The position numbers were made by a program, and so were the translations under genes. A stretch of DNA of 34,147 bases from a virus: positions 1 to 34,147 of IMG/VR virus record IMGVR_UViG_3300025417_000049, one strand, 5' to 3'. This document shows, one piece after another, positions 12,755 through 24,316 of the stretch. The notes under the pieces were generated by a model. It was not told the origin of the DNA. It was given only the letters and a program-made list of their open reading frames with translations, and ran no database searches. Position 1 is the stretch's first letter. Each line of letters opens with the position of its first letter.

Positions 12755-13915
12755 TTAAATTTTATTAAATAGTTTTTTGAATTTAATTATAGCTGTCACT
12801 ATAAATCTGCCTAAAAATGGTACTTTTGGAAACACTGGTGAGTATAAATTTGAAACTAGAATTGCAAAATATTTTGATTTACCTTTTGATATATGATCTG
12901 ATATTTCCTTTCCGATACCGTAAGCAAGTGCAAGACCATGACCATTTAAGCCATAAGCAATATATACGTCGTCATCATACTCGATATGCGGTAGTCTAGT
13001 GATTGTAGCATCAAATTCTGCTTGATAAGTACCTACTACGCTTATCTTATGATCATAAGGGAAAAACTTTTTATATTCTTTCTTTATTGTATTTTTTCTT
13101 TGAGAATAATCCAAAGTTTTTTGTGTATCACAACAACCGAAAAATAATCTACGACCTTGTTTCCTAAAATATGCAGGAACTTCTCTATTATCAAATACAC
13201 AATAGTCATCTGCAAAATTCGTTGGATCAATAAAATATACAACTCCCATTAGCGTCTTAACTGGTTGTACTCTAGCCATATACTTAGGTAAAACTAATTT
13301 ATCTGTACCCAGACCAGCAGCAATTACCACGTGTTTACCTAAGAAATCGCCAGTTTTTTTTGTTTTAACTCTTTTGCCAATGATTTTAGTTACTTCAGTG
13401 AATTCAAATATCCATACACCTAATGAGATTGCCTTTTCTTTTAAAATATTAATCATTACATGAGGATGAACATGAAATGCTGACCAATCAAACACAGCAG
13501 AATGAACGATTGGCGATTTAATATAATCGTCTATTTTGTCGTTTTCTATAACATATTTGCCTGAATTCGGAGGAATCATGTCTGATGGATTTTCTCCATC
13601 AACAATTGCTAATATATTCCCGTGACCAGATATAGCATCAGTATTTTCTAGTTCATCATATAAAGCATCGACAGATTCCCTAGAAAAATCATATAGACAT
13701 GTTGCTGTGTCATGACCGAATTTTTTCACCAATTCATTAAAACTCAATTCATAGCCGTCGATAATTTGACCGCCACTTTGAGAAGTTTGTCCTGAGCCAA
13801 TAGAATATTTTTCTAATAAACAGACTTTGAGACCATTTCTTGCTGCATTTATTGCAACAGATAGTCCCATCAGGCCGCCGCCTACTACAACAACATCAGT
13901 TTGTTTCATCATCAT
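12755..13915 (-). CDS. FAD-dependent oxidoreductase of the DAO family (PuuB-like)
   Basis: The 386-residue protein starts with a dinucleotide-binding fold, DVVVVGGGLMGLSVAINAAR (GGGLMG at 12-17), with the ribose-binding Glu at 35. SIGSGQTSQSGGQII corresponds to the (S)GRNGGQ segment of amine oxidases such as gamma-glutamylputrescine oxidase. VVIAAGLGTDKL and the C-terminal YIAYGLNGHGLALAYGIGK are further DAO-family FAD contacts. Substrate unknown: an amine or amino acid is likely. It overlaps the epimerase gene by 20 nt, so both are co-translated. Rare in phages; could act in polyamine metabolism or base/sugar modification (speculative). Confidence 0.87.
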   Translation of the reverse strand: MMMKQTDVVVVGGGLMGLSVAINAARNGLKVCLLEKYSIGSGQTSQSGGQIIDGYELSFNELVKKFGHDTATCLYDFSRESVDALYDELENTDAISGHGNILAIVDGENPSDMIPPNSGKYVIENDKIDDYIKSPIVHSAVFDWSAFHVHPHVMINILKEKAISLGVWIFEFTEVTKIIGKRVKTKKTGDFLGKHVVIAAGLGTDKLVLPKYMARVQPVKTLMGVVYFIDPTNFADDYCVFDNREVPAYFRKQGRRLFFGCCDTQKTLDYSQRKNTIKKEYKKFFPYDHKISVVGTYQAEFDATITRLPHIEYDDDVYIAYGLNGHGLALAYGIGKEISDHISKGKSKYFAILVSNLYSPVFPKVPFLGRFIVTAIIKFKKLFNKI

Positions 13916-14741
13916 TATTAATTTTAAGTAATTGCTCGAATGAATAGTTTCGTTCCATGTATGAAGAAGGATTCATCAAATACATAGATTCTAAATCACC
14001 CACTCTTCTCGAAACGGGTATAACGTCAAAATTTACACCATTCACTTCTTTAAATTTATTAACTATTTGTAATACTGTTTTTGGTTCACCATAAGCAAGA
14101 TTCTCAATTCTTTTAGCTGGTTTATCTATCGCTTTTATTATAGCTCTACATATGTCACAAACGTGAACATATTCTCTTAATGCTGTTCCGTCGGGCGATT
14201 CATTTCTATAATCTATTCCGTAAAGCGTAAAGCTACCTGTTTTGATAGCATTAATTAGATTGTACATTAAACCATCGGGATTAGTGGGGGCGATTCCATT
14301 CACGCCAATTACATTATAAAAACGAAATATAGTATAAGTCTCAGCATATTGACGAACAACATCTTCTGCCGCAAGTTTCGATAAGCTATATGGATTAATT
14401 GGATTTTCTGCCGCACCTGTGGAGGCAAATATAAAATTATCAAAATTGATCAATTCCATCAAATTAGAAGTGCCAATAATATTTGTTTCATAATATTTCG
14501 ACGGAATCTTAGTAGATTCATTCATTCTAACTAATGCTGCAAGATGAACAACAGTATCGAAGTTCAAATAACGACCAACACGAGCGACTTCTAAACCGTC
14601 TGTGACATCGATATTAAAATTAACATCACCATCTTTATCCAAAGTAAAAATGTTATAGTTTAAATTACTCTTGTTGAGCATTTGTACTAGATGTTTACCT
14701 ATGTAACCATTTGCTCCAGTGATTAAAATATTACGCTTCAT
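13896..14741 (-). CDS. NAD-dependent sugar epimerase/dehydratase (GalE-like)
   Basis: With start ATG 14741 (GAGGA upstream; overlaps the preceding stop at 14731) the 281-residue product is an extended short-chain dehydrogenase. Rossmann motif TGANGYIG at 8-15, Asp after the second strand (TLDKDGD), VVHLAALVR at 64-72, catalytic Ser/Thr near 108 (ASTGA) and YSLSK at 118-122. RFYNVIG and REYVHVCDICRAI match the substrate region of UDP-glucose 4-epimerases. About 50 residues shorter than GalE, so it may be a related NDP-sugar enzyme. Likely supplies or alters a nucleotide sugar. Confidence 0.87.
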   Translation of the reverse strand: MKRNILITGANGYIGKHLVQMLNKSNLNYNIFTLDKDGDVNFNIDVTDGLEVARVGRYLNFDTVVHLAALVRMNESTKIPSKYYETNIIGTSNLMELINFDNFIFASTGAAENPINPYSLSKLAAEDVVRQYAETYTIFRFYNVIGVNGIAPTNPDGLMYNLINAIKTGSFTLYGIDYRNESPDGTALREYVHVCDICRAIIKAIDKPAKRIENLAYGEPKTVLQIVNKFKEVNGVNFDVIPVSRRVGDLESMYLMNPSSYMERNYSFEQLLKINNDDETN

Positions 14742-14934
14742 CTTTGTTGTCCTCTTGTTCAATAGTTTTAATCTCTTCAACTTCTTCTTTTTCTAAAATC
14801 TCAATGTGAGGATACTTTTGTTTTTGACTTTCAAGATGATCGATAAGATTTTTCATTTCTGTTCTAATCGGTATATTATACGGCGTATATACATAAAATC
14901 TTTTTACTAGTCTAAGTAAGTCATCTGGATTCAT
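14731..14934 (-). CDS. hypothetical protein, 67 aa
   Basis: ATG 14934 overlaps the MazG-like stop (ATGA, 14931-14934), giving MNPDDLLRLVKRFYVYTPYN as N-terminus; the frame to 14949 has no support. The C-terminus is an acidic, probably disordered tail (EKEEVEEIKTIEQEDNKDEA). No family recognised. Confidence 0.65.
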   Translation of the reverse strand: MNPDDLLRLVKRFYVYTPYNIPIRTEMKNLIDHLESQKQKYPHIEILEKEEVEEIKTIEQEDNKDEA

Positions 14935-17655: not shown

Positions 17656-18000
17656 CTATCTAGTGAGTTTGTCAAATACGTCTTGAATAAAATCTAAAGA
17701 CGTTGTTGTTTTTTTGCACACAATACCGAACCATTTCATTTTTATCATATTCGATATGTATTCTAAAGGATCACCCAAAATACCTTCAAATAAATCTATG
17801 TTGCATATTTCGCCTTTTTCATCTTCTTTAAAAATCAATATGTGATACATGTCACCGAGACCATGATCTGAAGTATTCAATTTGTCACCCTGATTCTTGT
17901 AATTTGAACCTTCTAGATGCATTATTCCCTTTTTATTTGAAGGTAAGAAAAAAATAGAATCATAATTACCTTCACTCAATCCTTTCAGAAATTCTAGCAT
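17656..18000 (-). CDS. hypothetical protein, 114 aa
   Basis: Unrecognised alpha/beta protein with DSIFFLPSNKKGIMHLEGSN, then YHILIFKEDEKGEICNIDLF and a Lys-Thr-rich end. AAGGAG precedes ATG 18000, inside the tail of the SegE-like gene (29-nt overlap). It lies between the SegE-like endonuclease and rnh. Confidence 0.68.
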   Translation of the reverse strand: MLEFLKGLSEGNYDSIFFLPSNKKGIMHLEGSNYKNQGDKLNTSDHGLGDMYHILIFKEDEKGEICNIDLFEGILGDPLEYISNMIKMKWFGIVCKKTTTSLDFIQDVFDKLTR

Positions 18001-18406
18001 TATACTCCTTGATATGAGATTTTCTTATTCTACACATTAGCCAGACATTATAGTATTGGTCGCTTTCTAAAACACCTCTTAAAAATTGCTCTTTTGCTTC
18101 CAAATATCCACATTCGCCTTTTGATCTACAAAGATGTATTATCTCTCTAGTAAAGTTTTCTTTTCCTAATTCTAATACGTCTTTTTTTAGTTCTTCATTC
18201 GAACCATAATATGTTTTCCAATCGCTAGATAATTTAAGTTTTTTCTTCTTGCCTTTTATAACCTTTGTTCTTAAAGAATAGAAGAATTTCTTACCTATAT
18301 ATTTTCTATCATTTGTTTTATTTTTTATAATGTATACGTAACCGTAATTATCACCTATATCATCTTCGGTGAATTCTTTACCGTTGTAAATCCAATTTAC
18401 TGACAT
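17972..18406 (-). CDS. SegE-like GIY-YIG endonuclease
   Basis: The protein reads GYVYIIKNKTNDRKYIGKKF (GIY-YIG core, residues 22-41), then SDWKTYYGSNEELKKDV and GYLEAKEQFLRGVL with the expected catalytic Glu. This matches the SegE-like GIY-YIG family, common as free genes in T4-like phages. Members are thought to be homing endonucleases; some may have other nuclease roles. Length 144 residues is normal. TAATG coupling with the zinc-ribbon gene upstream. Confidence 0.85.
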   Translation of the reverse strand: MSVNWIYNGKEFTEDDIGDNYGYVYIIKNKTNDRKYIGKKFFYSLRTKVIKGKKKKLKLSSDWKTYYGSNEELKKDVLELGKENFTREIIHLCRSKGECGYLEAKEQFLRGVLESDQYYNVWLMCRIRKSHIKEYNARISERIE

Positions 18407-18608: not shown

Positions 18609-19592
18609 TTATGCCCAGACATCACTCCAATCTCCCGATAGCGCACCCTTTGCATAGTCGGTTGCTCTATTTTCGAAGAAATTGGTATGAGTTGGTGCGT
18701 TAATCATTTCCTCCACCCACGGTAAAGGATTACGTTTCACTTTGAATATACCTTTAAGACCTAATGAGATAAGTCTACGATCAGCAATATAACGAATATA
18801 CTTTTTAACATCTTCTTTAGTTAAATCTTCGCATTCATTTACACCAAAAGCTAAATCGATAAATTTATCTTCTAGTTCTACCATTTTTTCAGCAATAGTA
18901 TAAATTCTTGCTTTCAAATCGTCAGACCAAATCTCACGATTTTCTTCTATATATGTTCTGAATAATTTGATCATGTTTTCTGCATGTTGAGTTTCATCAA
19001 CAATTGACCAAGTTATGATTTGACCCATACCTTTCATCTTACCATGTCTAGCAAAATTCAATAGCATAATGAATGATGAAAACAATTGCATACCTTCAGT
19101 AAATGCAGAGAACACCGCGATGTGTGTTGCTGTGTTTTCTTTAGTCGTATTTTGCTTTGAAATATCTAAGACATAATCATGCTTCTCTTTCATCTCAGCA
19201 TATGCTAGAAACTCATTATATGTTGTCTCTGGGAGTCCTAATGTCTCAATTAGATGTGAGTATGCTGCTACGTGCAACGCTTCTCTAGCGGCGAATCCAA
19301 GAAGCATCATGCGTACTTCTGGTTGTGGAAAATAAGGTAGATAATTGTTGACATATCCACCCGCAACGTCAATATCGCCTTGAGTGAAAAATCTGAAAAT
19401 GTGTGTCAGAAATTGTTTTTCTGATTTTGATAATTTCTTTTTCCAATCTTTTACATCTTCTAGCATTGGTACTTCTGTGTGAAGCCAATGAGATTGTTCA
19501 TGCTTTAACCATGCGTTGTAAGCCCAAGGATAATTGAAAGGTTTAAATGAATCTCGTTCTTCTGTTAATTTACTATCTATTTTTTTAATCAT
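18609..19592 (-). CDS. nrdB: class I ribonucleotide reductase, small subunit
   Basis: The 327-residue protein has the di-iron set of NrdB: Asp73 or Asp75 (TQGDIDVAGGY), Glu104 and His107 (AAREALHVAAYSH), Glu166 (FTEGMQLF), Glu200 and His203 (DETQHAENM). Tyr111, in AAYSH, is in the position of the stable tyrosyl radical. It forms the radical that is passed to NrdA to reduce ribonucleoside diphosphates. The start immediately follows the NrdA-C stop, so the subunits are made from one mRNA. Shorter than T4 NrdB (388 aa) but with all ligands. Confidence 0.95.
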   Translation of the reverse strand: MIKKIDSKLTEERDSFKPFNYPWAYNAWLKHEQSHWLHTEVPMLEDVKDWKKKLSKSEKQFLTHIFRFFTQGDIDVAGGYVNNYLPYFPQPEVRMMLLGFAAREALHVAAYSHLIETLGLPETTYNEFLAYAEMKEKHDYVLDISKQNTTKENTATHIAVFSAFTEGMQLFSSFIMLLNFARHGKMKGMGQIITWSIVDETQHAENMIKLFRTYIEENREIWSDDLKARIYTIAEKMVELEDKFIDLAFGVNECEDLTKEDVKKYIRYIADRRLISLGLKGIFKVKRNPLPWVEEMINAPTHTNFFENRATDYAKGALSGDWSDVWA

Positions 19593-20657
19593 TTAACCCT
19601 CACAAGAAAGACAATCATTACCTTGTACTAATTGTGCCATGTCAAGTTCTTTAATTACTTGACGTTCTATTTTTTTAGATACTTTATCTGCTTTACCAAT
19701 TTTTTCTGATCTGCAATAGTAAAGTGTTTTTAATCCTTTCTTCCATGCCATGAAATGAATAGCATGTATATATTTAATATTTGCGTCTGGTCTAAATGCT
19801 AAATTTAATGATTGTGCTTGATCGATGTGAGTTTGTCTATCTGATGCTAATTCGATAATCCAACGTTGATCAATCTCCATAAATGTTTTATAAACAATTT
19901 TTTGATTTTCATCTAAAATATCCAAATGTTGTACAGAGCCATCATTAGCAATAATTGACGACCATGTATCATTATATACATCTTCGTCTTTTATTTTTTC
20001 TCTAAGAATAACATCTAACCATTTGTTCTTATTTAAGAAAGATCCCGATAAAGTGTCTTGTCGATAAGCATTTGCTCTATAAGGCTCAATACTAGGACTT
20101 GTGTTACCCATGATAATGCTTGAAGATGCATTTGGTGCTATCGCTGCCATATGTGAGAATCTTCTACCAGTACCTTCTGCATCAGGAGCTTCACCACGCT
20201 CTTTGCCTAATTCTAGATTAGCTTCGTCTAATCCTTTTCTAATATGACTGAATATTTTGTTATTGGCAACTTTTGCCATAACGCCTTCAAACGCTATATT
20301 ATTCTTTTGTAAATAGGCATGAAAACCCAAAGCTCCCACGCCAATAGAACGTTCACGTAAAGCGGAGAATTTTGCACGAGCGATTGTATCAGGAGCGTTG
20401 TCAATAAAATACTGAAGAACATTATCGAGCATTTCAGCAACATCTTTAAGAAATGATTTGTTGTTTTTCCATTCATCATAAGTCTCCAAATTCAAACTGG
20501 ATAAACAACAAACAGCAGTACGTTGTTCATTTGTTGGTAATATAATTTCAGAACAATTATGGACTAAAATATCATTTGCATAAAAATTATGATTATCTTG
20601 TACTGTAATGTCATAAACATCTTCTCTCTCGTTTAAATAACTAATTTTTATTGCCAT
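19593..20657 (-). CDS. nrdA: NrdA C-terminal part with intein C-half (split gene)
   Basis: With ATG 20657 (AAAGGAAG upstream) residues 1-34 are an intein C-fragment: MAIKISYLNERED, VYDITVQDNHNFYANDILVHN, with penultimate His33 and terminal Asn34. The C-extein begins at Cys35 (codon 20553-20555) with CSEIILPT, the thiyl-radical cysteine region of RNR (E. coli Cys439/Glu441), then AVCCLSSLNLE (second redox Cys), the radical-transfer pair in KTLYYCRS, and the C-terminal CLSC shuttle. Cys35 is both the +1 splicing nucleophile and the catalytic residue. The gene alone cannot encode a working subunit; trans-splicing with the 21449-22588 product is required. Confidence 0.93.
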   Translation of the reverse strand: MAIKISYLNEREDVYDITVQDNHNFYANDILVHNCSEIILPTNEQRTAVCCLSSLNLETYDEWKNNKSFLKDVAEMLDNVLQYFIDNAPDTIARAKFSALRERSIGVGALGFHAYLQKNNIAFEGVMAKVANNKIFSHIRKGLDEANLELGKERGEAPDAEGTGRRFSHMAAIAPNASSSIIMGNTSPSIEPYRANAYRQDTLSGSFLNKNKWLDVILREKIKDEDVYNDTWSSIIANDGSVQHLDILDENQKIVYKTFMEIDQRWIIELASDRQTHIDQAQSLNLAFRPDANIKYIHAIHFMAWKKGLKTLYYCRSEKIGKADKVSKKIERQVIKELDMAQLVQGNDCLSCEG

Positions 20658-21387
20658 ATTTTCTTCCTTTATACCATCCGTCACCAGGATGATTTTTTGA
20701 TTGTTTGCTATTTTTTAAAGTATCGTTACTGTACCACGCATTACCAATATTAATAGTAGATAGAGATTTCTTATGATCTAAAGATTTAATTCTACTCAAT
20801 CTGTCCAATTCCTCAACAGATATATTCAACTTATTGGATAAAGCAATCTTAAAACTATTTTGATAATCTGAAAATCTATTCTTAGAAAAATACTTAGGTA
20901 TGCCGTTAAATTTATTTCTAAGAGTTTCTAACATACCTTTATACGTAAAATCTTCTTTTTTTACGTAATTATTAAAAATTAAAACACATTGCTCTAATAT
21001 AAATTCATCAGAATATCCAGACCAATTAGCATTAGATTCTTTTGTAGAACTAATTGTTATTTTTGATAACCAATCATCATATTTTTCATCAGAGACAATC
21101 CATCCACCACAACCCCCAGGTTTTGCATTATAACCATGAATCATACTATTATGTTCTTTAATCGTTTCTTCTTCAATTGTTCTACACTCTTGAATACTTA
21201 GATCATCAAACAACACTTCTTTACTAAATGCTTCTTCTCCATATTTTCTTATAGCTGAATGAAATCTGAACGGACTTCCATTTCTAGCAGATGTGCAATG
21301 TGAGTTCCATCGTTCATTTAGAGTTCTTCCTGTCATCCCAATATATTTTTTACCGTTAATGGTGTTTGTTATGCAATATACTATCAT
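20641..21387 (-). CDS. GIY-YIG homing endonuclease lying between the nrdA halves
   Basis: The 248-residue protein starts MIVYCITNTINGKKYIGMTG (GIY-YIG core, residues 3-17), followed by TLNERWNSHC with the conserved Arg and an EEET helix with the expected Glu. The C-terminus (NAWYSNDTLKNSKQ...HPGDGWYKGRK) resembles the Trp/Gly-Arg DNA-binding module that ends many phage homing enzymes. It is a freestanding gene placed exactly at the intein break, the position where an in-frame intein would carry its endonuclease domain. Its 3' end overlaps the NrdA-C start by 17 nt and carries that gene's ribosome site. A late promoter and hairpin precede it. Confidence 0.9.
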   Translation of the reverse strand: MIVYCITNTINGKKYIGMTGRTLNERWNSHCTSARNGSPFRFHSAIRKYGEEAFSKEVLFDDLSIQECRTIEEETIKEHNSMIHGYNAKPGGCGGWIVSDEKYDDWLSKITISSTKESNANWSGYSDEFILEQCVLIFNNYVKKEDFTYKGMLETLRNKFNGIPKYFSKNRFSDYQNSFKIALSNKLNISVEELDRLSRIKSLDHKKSLSTINIGNAWYSNDTLKNSKQSKNHPGDGWYKGRKYGNKN

Positions 21388-21395
21388 TTTAATCC

Positions 21396-21445
21396 TTAGT
21401 AGGTAAATATATCTATTTATAATTTTAGATTTTTCTACCTACTAA
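21396..21445 (-). promoter_or_regulatory. hairpin before the GIY-YIG gene (possible ribosome-site control)
   Basis: A perfect 10-bp inverted repeat TTAGTAGGTA (21436-21445) and TACCTACTAA (21396-21405) with a 30-nt loop starts right after the NrdA-N stop. The 3' arm overlaps the first two bases of the ribosome site AAGGAT (21392-21397) of the start at 21387. No T-run follows, so it is not a terminator. Confidence 0.55.
21414..21421 (-). promoter_or_regulatory. T4-type late promoter TATAAATA in the hairpin loop
   Basis: An exact TATAAATA on the minus strand, inside the loop of the 21396-21445 hairpin. A late transcript starting some 6 nt downstream would lack the 5' arm, so the hairpin could not form and the endonuclease could be translated. 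It implies a gp55-type sigma factor elsewhere in the genome. Confidence 0.6.
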
Positions 21446-21448
21446 TTA

Positions 21449-22588
21449 TTAACGAATATCTATTTCATCATCTTCTCTTAAGTCTTTAGCCATTACATAT
21501 CCACGATTCTTAGTGTAGATTTTATGCTCTGGCGTACACTTAATTCTTTTACCAGTTTCTTCATCTTCAATAAGCATCAATTGTGCGTTTTTTGATGTCA
21601 GAGCGGCATTTGTCACCGTTTTATATTCTACAACACCAGTGTCTATGTTTTTAGATTCAACCTTAATCTCTTTACCAGACTCAAAAATAGAAATGATATT
21701 ATCTAATCTAATAGATATATGAGCATTATCCACGATTACATTTACTAGTGTATCACCAGTAAGACAAAGATTCGATTGATGTACTTTCAAGCCTTTGTCT
21801 TTTAGCCATTTTGGTAAAAATTCATTACTTCTATCAATAAAATGCAAATAAGGTTCACCTGTCTGCATACGTATTTCTAATATCATTTGCCATAACATTT
21901 TAGCTGATACGACTTCACGAACCTCTTTTGATGCTGGATCAATCAATTTCCAATCATCGTTCGCTTCTGGATCTATCATGCATCTTTCAATGATTTGCAT
22001 GAAATCATCTGTTATGTTAATTCCGTGATGTAGATTTAAACATCTTATGTTTTGGTCACCCGTCGGCTTTCGCATCTCCAAAAACGATATAACGTCGGGA
22101 TGTGAAATATCAAGATAAGCGGCGTAAGAACCACGACGAGTACTACCTTGGCGATAAGCGAGAGAACTTGCATCATAAGTTTTAAGATGAGGCATAACCC
22201 CTGTAGACTTATCATCAGCAGACCTAATACCAAAGCCAATACCAACGCCACCGCCGAGCATAGAAAGCCAAGCTGTTTCTGAAAAGTTTTCAACTAATCC
22301 CTCCGATGTATCTTCTATGTAATTAAGAAAACAACTTATTGGCATTCCTTTCTTCGATCTTCCAAAAGACAAGATCGGCGTAGAATACGATAACCAATGT
22401 TTTGAAGAATAATCATATAAACGTTGTGCATGTTCTGGGTTACTACCAAACGTTTTTGATACAAATGCAAATCTTTGTTGTGGTGATGTTTCGTCGTTTT
22501 TCATATAAGATTCTTTTAATCTTATAATACCAAGTTCATCGAATAACTTGTCTCTTTCTAAATCTATTTTAATACCCAGATATTCCAT
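21449..22588 (-). CDS. nrdA: NrdA N-terminal part with intein N-half (split gene)
   Basis: Residues 1-274 are the N-extein of class I RNR large subunit, with PISCFLN (first redox Cys, 86), GGGVGIGFGIRS and STRRGSYAAYLD, and VHQSNL at the end. There is no room for an N-terminal ATP-cone. Residues 275-379 are an intein N-fragment: Cys275 in CLTGDTLV (block A), and CTPEHKIYTKNRGYV (block B, TxxH), ending in DLREDDEIDIR and a stop at 21449. The sequence strongly resembles split inteins reported in nrdA genes from marine metagenomes. AATAAGGCATTT precedes the start. Splicing would yield a 594-residue NrdA. Confidence 0.94.
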   Translation of the reverse strand: MEYLGIKIDLERDKLFDELGIIRLKESYMKNDETSPQQRFAFVSKTFGSNPEHAQRLYDYSSKHWLSYSTPILSFGRSKKGMPISCFLNYIEDTSEGLVENFSETAWLSMLGGGVGIGFGIRSADDKSTGVMPHLKTYDASSLAYRQGSTRRGSYAAYLDISHPDVISFLEMRKPTGDQNIRCLNLHHGINITDDFMQIIERCMIDPEANDDWKLIDPASKEVREVVSAKMLWQMILEIRMQTGEPYLHFIDRSNEFLPKWLKDKGLKVHQSNLCLTGDTLVNVIVDNAHISIRLDNIISIFESGKEIKVESKNIDTGVVEYKTVTNAALTSKNAQLMLIEDEETGKRIKCTPEHKIYTKNRGYVMAKDLREDDEIDIR

Positions 22589-22949: not shown

Positions 22950-23610
22950 TCACAAACTCCTTAATCATTGGAAAAATTGGTTCAATAGCATTAGCACAAG
23001 CAACAGCAACTTCACGATGTTCTTTTTGAGTAGATTTGTCTGTTCTTAATTGTATATAGTGTACCCATGAACGAAGGGTACCATTTATATAAAGTTTTGA
23101 AACAGTTATTCCTTCAGGCAATACTGCTCTTGCTTGTTCTTTTGCGATCCCGTTCTCAATAGCCCATTCATATTGTTTTTTAACTTGTTCTAATAGAATT
23201 TCTTGACGATCTTTCCATTGACGTTTCAATACGTCATCTGTCACATCAATGCTATTTTGACGATTTTTAGTATCTTGAAGTCTAGCATCACGAACTTCAA
23301 AATGCAAATCTTTAGTTGGGTCTGCATATCTTTGACTATATTCACTAAACGAAAATGAACGATGTCTTAAAATTTGTCTTGCAATGTCCCTAGTTGTTTC
23401 CACCTCTAAACAAGCTGATGTGAGTTCTAATGGGGACCAATGTTGATGTTTTATCAGAAACCTAATTAAATTCTCCGAAGTTTCTGTATTAAGTTGATTT
23501 CCTGGATTAGAAACTCTAGCACAGAATGAAATGAGATCCTGTACATTTTTTATTCCAACGTCCGTCATTTCAGATGATGGTTGACTATAACTAATTAACC
23601 GCACATTCAT
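22942..23610 (-). CDS. thyX: FAD-dependent thymidylate synthase
   Basis: The 222-residue protein carries the ThyX signature: RHRSFSFSEYSQR (RHRxxS...S.R) at residues 82-94, plus CARVSNPGNQ at the N-terminus and LRSWVHYIQLRTDKSTQKEH near the C-terminus. ThyX makes dTMP from dUMP with FAD, NADPH and methylene-tetrahydrofolate, and here replaces T4 Td. GAGGAG lies before ATG 23610, within the tail of the HNH gene (20-nt overlap). It forms a nucleotide-synthesis block with the NTP-PPase and nrdA/nrdB. Confidence 0.94.
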   Translation of the reverse strand: MNVRLISYSQPSSEMTDVGIKNVQDLISFCARVSNPGNQLNTETSENLIRFLIKHQHWSPLELTSACLEVETTRDIARQILRHRSFSFSEYSQRYADPTKDLHFEVRDARLQDTKNRQNSIDVTDDVLKRQWKDRQEILLEQVKKQYEWAIENGIAKEQARAVLPEGITVSKLYINGTLRSWVHYIQLRTDKSTQKEHREVAVACANAIEPIFPMIKEFVNV

Positions 23611-24316
23611 TATTTCTCCTCTTTGAACGTTTTAAACCTATGTGACCCTGATTTGAATATGGTCCACTATAATTTCCACCTATGCCTGGATATGGTGAAT
23701 GACCATGTAATACTATATAATAACCTTTAGCATGATGCCTATTGTTACTAGTAGATGGTTTATCTCTATCTCCATAAAGTGTTCTATTTAAATTCCTCTT
23801 AACCCCATTTTTTCTACCCCATTCAGTAACAGATACATTACTCGCAACCAAATCTCCTGTAAAATAATTATAAACATCTACGGCTTGTGATTTACTATTA
23901 TTTAATCCTACATAAGAGCCATTTTTCACGGCAGAAGCAATTCTCTTTGCAATACTTTCCTTCGTATTAAATTCAATTTTGATTCCTTTAAGTTTTACAG
24001 ATTGAGATTTTGCTTTTCTTGTTCTGGCTTCAGCTAAAATATGTAGGGGTGGGATTACTCTTTTCATCGCAGAATTTTTCATTAAACACATCATACTAAA
24101 TGCGTGAACTAAACTGTAATTATTTGGGTGTAACCTAACCAACAGCCAATGAACTAATAAATGACATCTCGCATTCAAATAAACTAAATTGCTTTCATCA
24201 TTGGTCCCACCCATACACTTAGGAATAATATGGTGACGTTCGGAGTAAATATTTGACGACTTTTCTTTCAACCCATATTTTTCTATAATATTATCGTAGA
24301 TTTTTTTATAATTCAT
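23591..24316 (-). CDS. HNH homing endonuclease between primase and thyX
   Basis: Residues 23-56 hold an HNH motif: YSERHHIIPKCMGGTNDESN with His28-His29 and Asn43, then LNARCHLLVHWLL with His52 and His56. The middle has KSQAVDVYNYFTGDLVASNV and TEWGRKNGVKRNLNRTL, resembling a NUMOD-type DNA-binding helix-turn-helix, which is common in HNH homing enzymes. It has a weak ribosome site (AAAGATAAAATATC). Its last codons run into thyX, so the gene was inserted without harming the thyX start. Confidence 0.87.
   Translation of the reverse strand: MNYKKIYDNIIEKYGLKEKSSNIYSERHHIIPKCMGGTNDESNLVYLNARCHLLVHWLLVRLHPNNYSLVHAFSMMCLMKNSAMKRVIPPLHILAEARTRKAKSQSVKLKGIKIEFNTKESIAKRIASAVKNGSYVGLNNSKSQAVDVYNYFTGDLVASNVSVTEWGRKNGVKRNLNRTLYGDRDKPSTSNNRHHAKGYYIVLHGHSPYPGIGGNYSGPYSNQGHIGLKRSKRRNNECAVN

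What the first reader, a model, noticed from the sequence alone, without database searches (positions are those of the whole stretch)
19593..22588. NrdA is encoded by two genes joined by a split intein at the catalytic cysteine
Seen: the first gene ends with an intein N-fragment (Cys275 CLTGDTLV to a stop at 21449), and the second starts with a 34-residue intein C-fragment (ANDILVHN) followed by CSEIILPT. Neither gene is a complete RNR. Established: blocks A, B, F and G of inteins and fractured genes with split inteins and a free endonuclease are known from marine metagenomes, including nrdA. Inference: the +1 nucleophile is also the thiyl-radical Cys (E. coli Cys439), so no RNR activity exists before trans-splicing. 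This makes splicing a possible checkpoint on dNTP supply.
Basis: partly seen in the sequence, partly recalled or inferred. Interest (0 to 1): 0.9.

Follow-up and report, generated by a model that had tools for sequence, protein, structure and literature searches.

The report
Split-intein ribonucleotide reductase in a phage
In this T4-like phage the DNA-building enzyme NrdA is made as two proteins that a split self-splicing element (intein) almost certainly stitches together at the catalytic cysteine, with a selfish DNA-cutting gene lodged in the gap; it is a clear new example of a known arrangement ("fractured genes") that turns out to be common in phages.

Summary
nrdA is split: 274 extein residues plus a 105-residue IntN, then a free-standing GIY-YIG homing endonuclease gene, then a 34-residue IntC plus 320 extein residues. 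Splicing would give 594 residues reading KVHQSNL|CSEIILPTN, the sequence found at intact empty sites. The +1 cysteine is the catalytic thiyl cysteine. It is not an assembly artefact: six other contigs carry the same arrangement. Every splicing residue is present, and both intein halves are under purifying selection. Intein and endonuclease are far less diverged at silent sites than the exteins around them, so the insert has moved horizontally. Two things were missed. The endonuclease has a T4-type late promoter inside a hairpin that covers its ribosome site, as for I-TevI and Aeh1 mobE. And the arrangement is widespread: 33 split-intein clusters, most at this cysteine, with GIY-YIG, HNH or PD-(D/E)xK-like nucleases in the gap; 18 of 25 nuclease-bearing clusters have a significant hairpin. 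The "checkpoint on dNTP supply" has no support; sporadic presence and horizontal movement fit a selfish element. That unspliced protein is inactive is likely but unproven. Verdict: a real new member of the known fractured-gene kind.

The parts
21767..22588 (-). NrdA N-extein, 274 aa (ends ...KVHQSNL)
   Evidence: PRK09102 profile 14-283, PF02867, PF00317; empty sites in relatives read KVHQSNLCSEII
21449..21766 (-). IntN, 105 aa plus stop: Cys1 and block B TPEH
   Evidence: TIGR01445 above cut-off; closest solved chain NrdJ-1 split intein 8ubs, E 6e-16; Cys1 and the block B Thr and His invariant in 10 homologues
21396..21445 (-). RNA hairpin (12-bp outer stem, 5-bp inner stem) whose 3' arm overlaps the endonuclease Shine-Dalgarno AAGGA (21397-21393)
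   Evidence: -17.5 kcal/mol, z -5.0; in L004 the stem is kept with one A-U/G-C double change and one G-C/G-U change
21414..21421 (-). TATAAATA, T4-type late promoter motif, inside the hairpin (inner loop and stem)
   Evidence: only copy in the window, 6.4 expected by shuffling; ATAAATA 16 seen against 1.0 expected just upstream of starts in relative G004
20641..21387 (-). free-standing GIY-YIG homing endonuclease gene, 248 aa
   Evidence: PF01541; PHROG homing endonuclease families; I-TevI catalytic domain 1mk0, E 1e-4; dN/dS 0.24 against L004
20663..20669 (-). Shine-Dalgarno AAGGAAG for the C gene, inside the 3' end of the endonuclease gene
   Evidence: sequence; same in L004
20556..20657 (-). 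IntC, 34 aa, ending HN; its ATG overlaps the endonuclease 3' end by 17 bp
   Evidence: TIGR01443 above cut-off; VHN|C invariant in 8 homologues
19593..20555 (-). NrdA C-extein, 320 aa plus stop, beginning with the catalytic Cys (+1 nucleophile)
   Evidence: PRK09102 profile 283-604; aligned to solved class I R1 chains
18609..19592 (-). nrdB, class I small subunit; starts directly after the nrdA-C stop
   Evidence: PF00268, PRK09614 family; junction TAAATG

Best explanation
A selfish fractured-gene cassette sits in the nrdA of a T4-like phage. NrdA-N-IntN and IntC-NrdA-C are probably translated from the same nrd message; the intein halves associate and trans-splice by the class-1 route (Cys1 acyl shift, transfer to Cys+1, Asn34 cyclisation), leaving a 594-residue NrdA with no scar. 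The +1 nucleophile is the catalytic cysteine, which the enzyme cannot lose. The GIY-YIG gene between the halves probably cleaves intein-less nrdA alleles of co-infecting phages, so that repair copies the whole insert. Its translation from the early nrd message is probably blocked by the RBS hairpin and permitted on a transcript starting at the TATAAATA late promoter within the hairpin. Shown here: anatomy, intact splicing residues, purifying selection, horizontal movement, conserved hairpin and promoter motif. Inferred: splicing, cleavage, timing.
For: Exact architecture and reading frames. Intein Cys1, TxxH, HN and Cys+1 present and invariant among homologues. Same order in six other contigs. 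The spliced junction equals the empty-site sequence KVHQSNLCSEIILPTN, the commonest in 147 intact loci. Window against L004: exteins 74% aa with dS 2.4 or saturated, thyX dS 1.7, but IntN dS 0.95, IntC 0.87, endonuclease 0.45; dN/dS 0.23, 0.07 and 0.24 for the three insert parts. Carriers are not one clade on the extein tree. Hairpin z -5.0 and motif. Recurrence: 16 of 25 nuclease-bearing split loci have ATAAATA after the N-gene stop against 5.2 expected, and 18 of 25 have a hairpin at z -2.5 or lower. Cultured Yersinia phage TG1 has the same layout with an HNH enzyme; its relative phiR1-RT has the intact gene. The I-TevI and mobE precedent is described in PMC2988022.
Against: No splicing, cleavage or transcript data. 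The late promoter is a motif, not a mapped start. Each intein half alone is below the Pfam gathering score for Intein_splicing (25.5 and 31.7 against 35.8), as expected of half domains. The hairpin comparison rests on two distinct sequences in this family, and against shuffles the covariation is not significant.
Confidence: 0.9

Rival explanations
1. Genes in pieces: the two halves assemble non-covalently into an active NrdA without splicing, as reported for phage Aeh1 nrdA-a/nrdA-b.
For: Aeh1 NrdA, split by mobE without an intein, is functional (PMC3653736).
Against: Here both halves carry complete, selected intein fragments with every splicing residue invariant. An unspliced complex would hold about 139 foreign residues at the catalytic cysteine.
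Confidence: 0.05
2. Splicing is a regulatory checkpoint that times or conditions dNTP supply.
For: NrdA should be inactive before splicing. An intein at the metal ligands of Aquifex R2 was reported to raise iron loading (PMC8772380), so inteins in RNR can affect function.
Against: Close relatives lack the insert. Presence is sporadic and horizontally acquired. The related NrdJ-1 split intein is exceptionally fast (PMC7090010), which leaves little delay to regulate.
Confidence: 0.04
3. Decaying pseudogene, with RNR supplied by another copy or by the host.
For: Campylobacter phage nrdA genes interrupted by inteins have been read as degenerating (PMC3653736). The window is a fragment, so a second nrdA cannot be excluded.
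Against: All frames intact; dN/dS 0.07-0.24 across the insert and 0.11 for the N-extein; nrdB intact; relatives have a single nrdA.
Confidence: 0.02
4. Assembly or binning artefact that joined an endonuclease gene into nrdA.
For: Metagenomic contig.
Against: Same junctions in six other contigs of a related family (71-81% identity in insert parts), and the same layout in isolated phages.
Confidence: 0.005

Closest known systems
Fractured genes with split inteins (Dassa et al. 2009; 7 nrdA and 2 nrdJ loci cited in PMC3653736; NrdA-2 intein listed in PMC7090010)
   Same: conserved enzyme gene broken by a split intein with a free-standing endonuclease gene between the halves; phage; nrdA
   Different: GIY-YIG endonuclease here. 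From memory, that paper stresses a Vsr-like endonuclease family in about half of its loci and already mentions control elements brought in with the endonuclease; I could not read it or compare NrdA-2 by sequence
NrdJ-1 split intein (PDB 8ubs, 9omb)
   Same: closest solved intein to IntN (E 6e-16); sits in an RNR large-subunit gene
   Different: class II RNR; from memory it is inserted one codon later, after the catalytic cysteine, with Ser+1
Yersinia phage vB_YenM_TG1 nrdA (KP202158)
   Same: split at SNL|C with an endonuclease gene between the halves, TATAAATA in a hairpin loop
   Different: HNH enzyme; T4-type longer NrdA; IntN 35% identical
Aeromonas phage Aeh1 mobE in nrdA, and T4 I-TevI
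   Same: endonuclease gene inside a nucleotide-metabolism gene with late promoter and RBS hairpin (PMC2988022)
   Different: Aeh1: no intein and no splicing. I-TevI: inside a group I intron

Membership tests
class 1 split intein | Cys1, block B TxxH, penultimate His, terminal Asn, Cys+1 | tested here: met
class 1 split intein | curated intein models: TIGR01445 N-terminal and TIGR01443 C-terminal | tested here: met
   25.5 against 24.5 and 35.8 against 15.6 bits
class 1 split intein | Pfam Intein_splicing gathering score | tested here: inconclusive
   each half scores below 35.8 (25.5 and 31.7); the model spans the whole domain
class 1 split intein | protein trans-splicing activity | not testable with these tools
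   needs expression
fractured gene (Dassa 2009) | conserved enzyme gene broken by a split intein with a free-standing endonuclease gene between the halves, in phage | tested here: met
   phage context: gp20-type portal and tail tube genes
fractured gene (Dassa 2009) | Vsr-like endonuclease (found in about half of the loci; from memory, not a requirement) | tested here: not met
   GIY-YIG instead
GIY-YIG homing endonuclease | GIY-YIG catalytic domain above the curated score | tested here: met
   PF01541 35.8 against 22.6; TIGR01453 is below its cut-off (42.4 against 56.05)
GIY-YIG homing endonuclease | sporadic, horizontally mobile distribution at a fixed site | tested here: met
   dS contrast, tree, empty sites
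GIY-YIG homing endonuclease | cleavage of the intein-less site | not testable with these tools
   needs purified enzyme
class I NrdA | catalytic cysteine aligned with solved class I R1 chains; R1 barrel and all-alpha domains; nrdB partner | tested here: met
   PRK09102 halves score 288 and 447 bits against a whole-protein cut-off of 620
Aeh1-type genes in pieces | split without intein sequence | tested here: not met
   intein halves present

The most novel reading that the evidence does not exclude
The cassette imposes real temporal control on RNR: early, the hairpin silences the endonuclease and leaves the overlapping nrdA-C start free; late, ribosomes translating the endonuclease run over the nrdA-C ribosome site and shut off new NrdA-C, so the split layout gives the phage an early-only RNR. 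Different nuclease families would have converged on this layout partly for that reason.
Probability: 0.08. Interest if true: 0.7.

Novelty: new member of a known kind. Interest (0 to 1): 0.42.

Why it matters
It shows an intein whose splicing nucleophile is the host enzyme's catalytic radical cysteine, a site the host cannot mutate away, and that the split arrangement there is common in phages rather than rare. Unrelated nucleases (GIY-YIG, HNH, PD-(D/E)xK-like) sit in the same gap, mostly behind a hairpin and often with a late-promoter motif; this extends the control known for I-TevI and mobE to split-intein loci and suggests a general rule for how a selfish nuclease lives inside an early gene. 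It also supplies many natural split inteins for protein engineering.

Tried and rejected
Assembly artefact: rejected (independent contigs). Group I intron instead of intein: no Rfam match in the window and both intein halves are in frame. A second nrdA: none in the window; seven long relatives have one each; not testable for the missing part of this genome. Close isolate of this phage: no megablast match over 8.6 kb in INPHARED. Reading Dassa 2009 and Carvajal-Vallejos 2012: not held, so NrdA-2 could not be compared by sequence. Co-conversion tract: only a weak rise in identity on the C side, not claimed. Covariation in the hairpin: two distinct sequences only, shuffles not exceeded, so the case rests on folding energy and recurrence. 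Some endonuclease start codons in the survey were chosen by rule, and clusters at 90% IntN identity are not fully independent.

Full report
Observation. The coding is exactly as described. On the minus strand the order is thyX, a PRA-PH-type gene, nrdA-N, endonuclease, nrdA-C, nrdB. nrdA-N has 274 extein residues and then 105 residues that score as an intein N-terminal region. nrdA-C begins with 34 residues that score as an intein C-terminal region, then 320 extein residues. The curated NrdA model PRK09102 is covered by the two products at positions 14-283 and 283-604, so the joined product is one complete NrdA. The joined sequence KVHQSNL|CSEIILPTN is the commonest sequence at this place in 147 uninterrupted loci of relatives. 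Aligned with solved class I R1 chains, the +1 cysteine is the catalytic SNLC cysteine.

It is real. Six other IMG/VR contigs hold the same order with the same junctions, and isolated phages hold a split-intein nrdA of the same layout (Yersinia phage TG1; Campylobacter phage F379; Klebsiella phage KP13-7). The window is a linear fragment of a T4-like phage with a portal gene of the gp20 type and a tail tube gene.

Function of the intein. Cys1, the block B Thr and His, the C-terminal His-Asn and Cys+1 are invariant in the homologues aligned. The closest solved intein is the split NrdJ-1, reported among the exceptionally fast split inteins (PMC7090010). Against L004, dN/dS is 0.23 for IntN, 0.07 for IntC and 0.24 for the endonuclease, so all three are maintained. 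Trans-splicing is therefore very likely, though not shown.

Mobility. Synonymous divergence between window and L004 is 2.4 or saturated for the exteins and 1.7 for thyX, but 0.95, 0.87 and 0.45 for IntN, IntC and the endonuclease. On the extein tree the carriers do not form one clade, L004 grouping with intein-less L076 and L079 (97% SH-aLRT; a quick tree, and L004 is a long branch). About 150 loci of close relatives have the empty site. TG1 has the insert while phiR1-RT, 91% identical over the C half, has an intact nrdA. This is the signature of a homing element.

Control of the endonuclease. Between the nrdA-N stop and the endonuclease ATG lies a hairpin (-17.5 kcal/mol, z -5.0) whose 3' arm overlaps the Shine-Dalgarno. 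Inside it is TATAAATA, the only copy in the window where 6.4 are expected. In a 163-kb relative, ATAAATA occurs in the 60 bases before 16 starts where 1.0 is expected, and in the window before three further genes, including the tail tube gene, so it behaves as this clade's late promoter motif. The stem is kept in L004 with one double change. PMC2988022 describes this layout for I-TevI, I-TevII, I-TevIII, segB and Aeh1 mobE: early read-through transcripts fold and hide the ribosome site, late transcripts start inside the hairpin and do not. nrdA-C has its own Shine-Dalgarno inside the end of the endonuclease gene, whose last 17 bases overlap the nrdA-C start, so keeping the endonuclease untranslated early would also keep ribosomes off that start (inference).

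Survey. A profile of ten IntN sequences found 209 relatives in viral contigs, of which the best 80 were kept, and only 5 in one genome each of about 85,000 prokaryote species. Including isolates and the window, 33 distinct split IntN clusters were found. In 25 both sides read NL|C, the same site as here; two isolates (KP13-7 and F379) have it one codon later. A smaller set carries a contiguous intein at the same site (for example L264, L266, L282, L302, PAU). Between the halves lie GIY-YIG, HNH-type or PD-(D/E)xK-like (phage endonuclease I) nucleases, or nothing. Of 25 nuclease-bearing clusters, 16 have ATAAATA within 110 nt of the N-gene stop against 5.2 expected from dinucleotide shuffles, and 18 have a hairpin at z -2.5 or lower. 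The hairpins differ in sequence, so the layout seems to have been reached or kept repeatedly.

The checkpoint idea has no positive evidence. Lack of activity before splicing is likely because about 139 foreign residues sit at the catalytic cysteine, but the thiol is present and Aeh1 shows that a split NrdA can work; it must be measured.

Known or new. PMC3653736 cites Dassa et al. 2009 for seven nrdA and two nrdJ loci interrupted by inteins in ocean metagenomes, and PMC7090010 lists NrdA-2 as a split intein. Dassa et al. was not readable here; from memory it describes split inteins with a free-standing endonuclease gene between the halves and mentions gene control elements brought in by it. 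The window is therefore a new member of a known kind. What I did not find in the held literature is the breadth of the split arrangement at the catalytic cysteine, the interchange of nuclease families in one gap, and the count of late-promoter hairpins at these loci.

Noticed in passing
L217 (Klebsiella phage KP13-7), 2029-7559: NrdA is coded in four pieces: one break with an HNH-like ORF (no Rfam intron match), a split intein with a GIY-YIG gene at C439|C440, and a second split intein (ends FTGNH... / begins ...VSHN|TSSQ) with another endonuclease-like gene.
   Followed up: partly
window 17972-18406 (-): A SegE-type GIY-YIG protein (Pfam 137.8 bits) two genes after nrdB.
   Followed up: no
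window 23591-24316 (-): A free-standing HNH endonuclease gene upstream of and overlapping thyX by 20 bp: with the two GIY-YIG genes this makes a nuclease-rich nrd/thyX region.
   Followed up: no
L248 4860-5891, L288 4910-5680: PD-(D/E)xK-like (phage endonuclease I / Holliday resolvase) proteins sit between split-intein halves of RNR genes.
   Followed up: partly
L276 against L274, L275, L277: Same split-intein cluster but about 615 bp shorter between the halves, which may be an endonuclease deletion with the split intein kept.
   Followed up: no
window, whole: TATAAATA is depleted (1 found, 6.4 expected), as if late promoters are avoided elsewhere in this stretch.
   Followed up: partly
window 12755-14780 (-): A DAO-type FAD oxidoreductase next to a nucleotide-sugar epimerase-like gene.
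   Followed up: no
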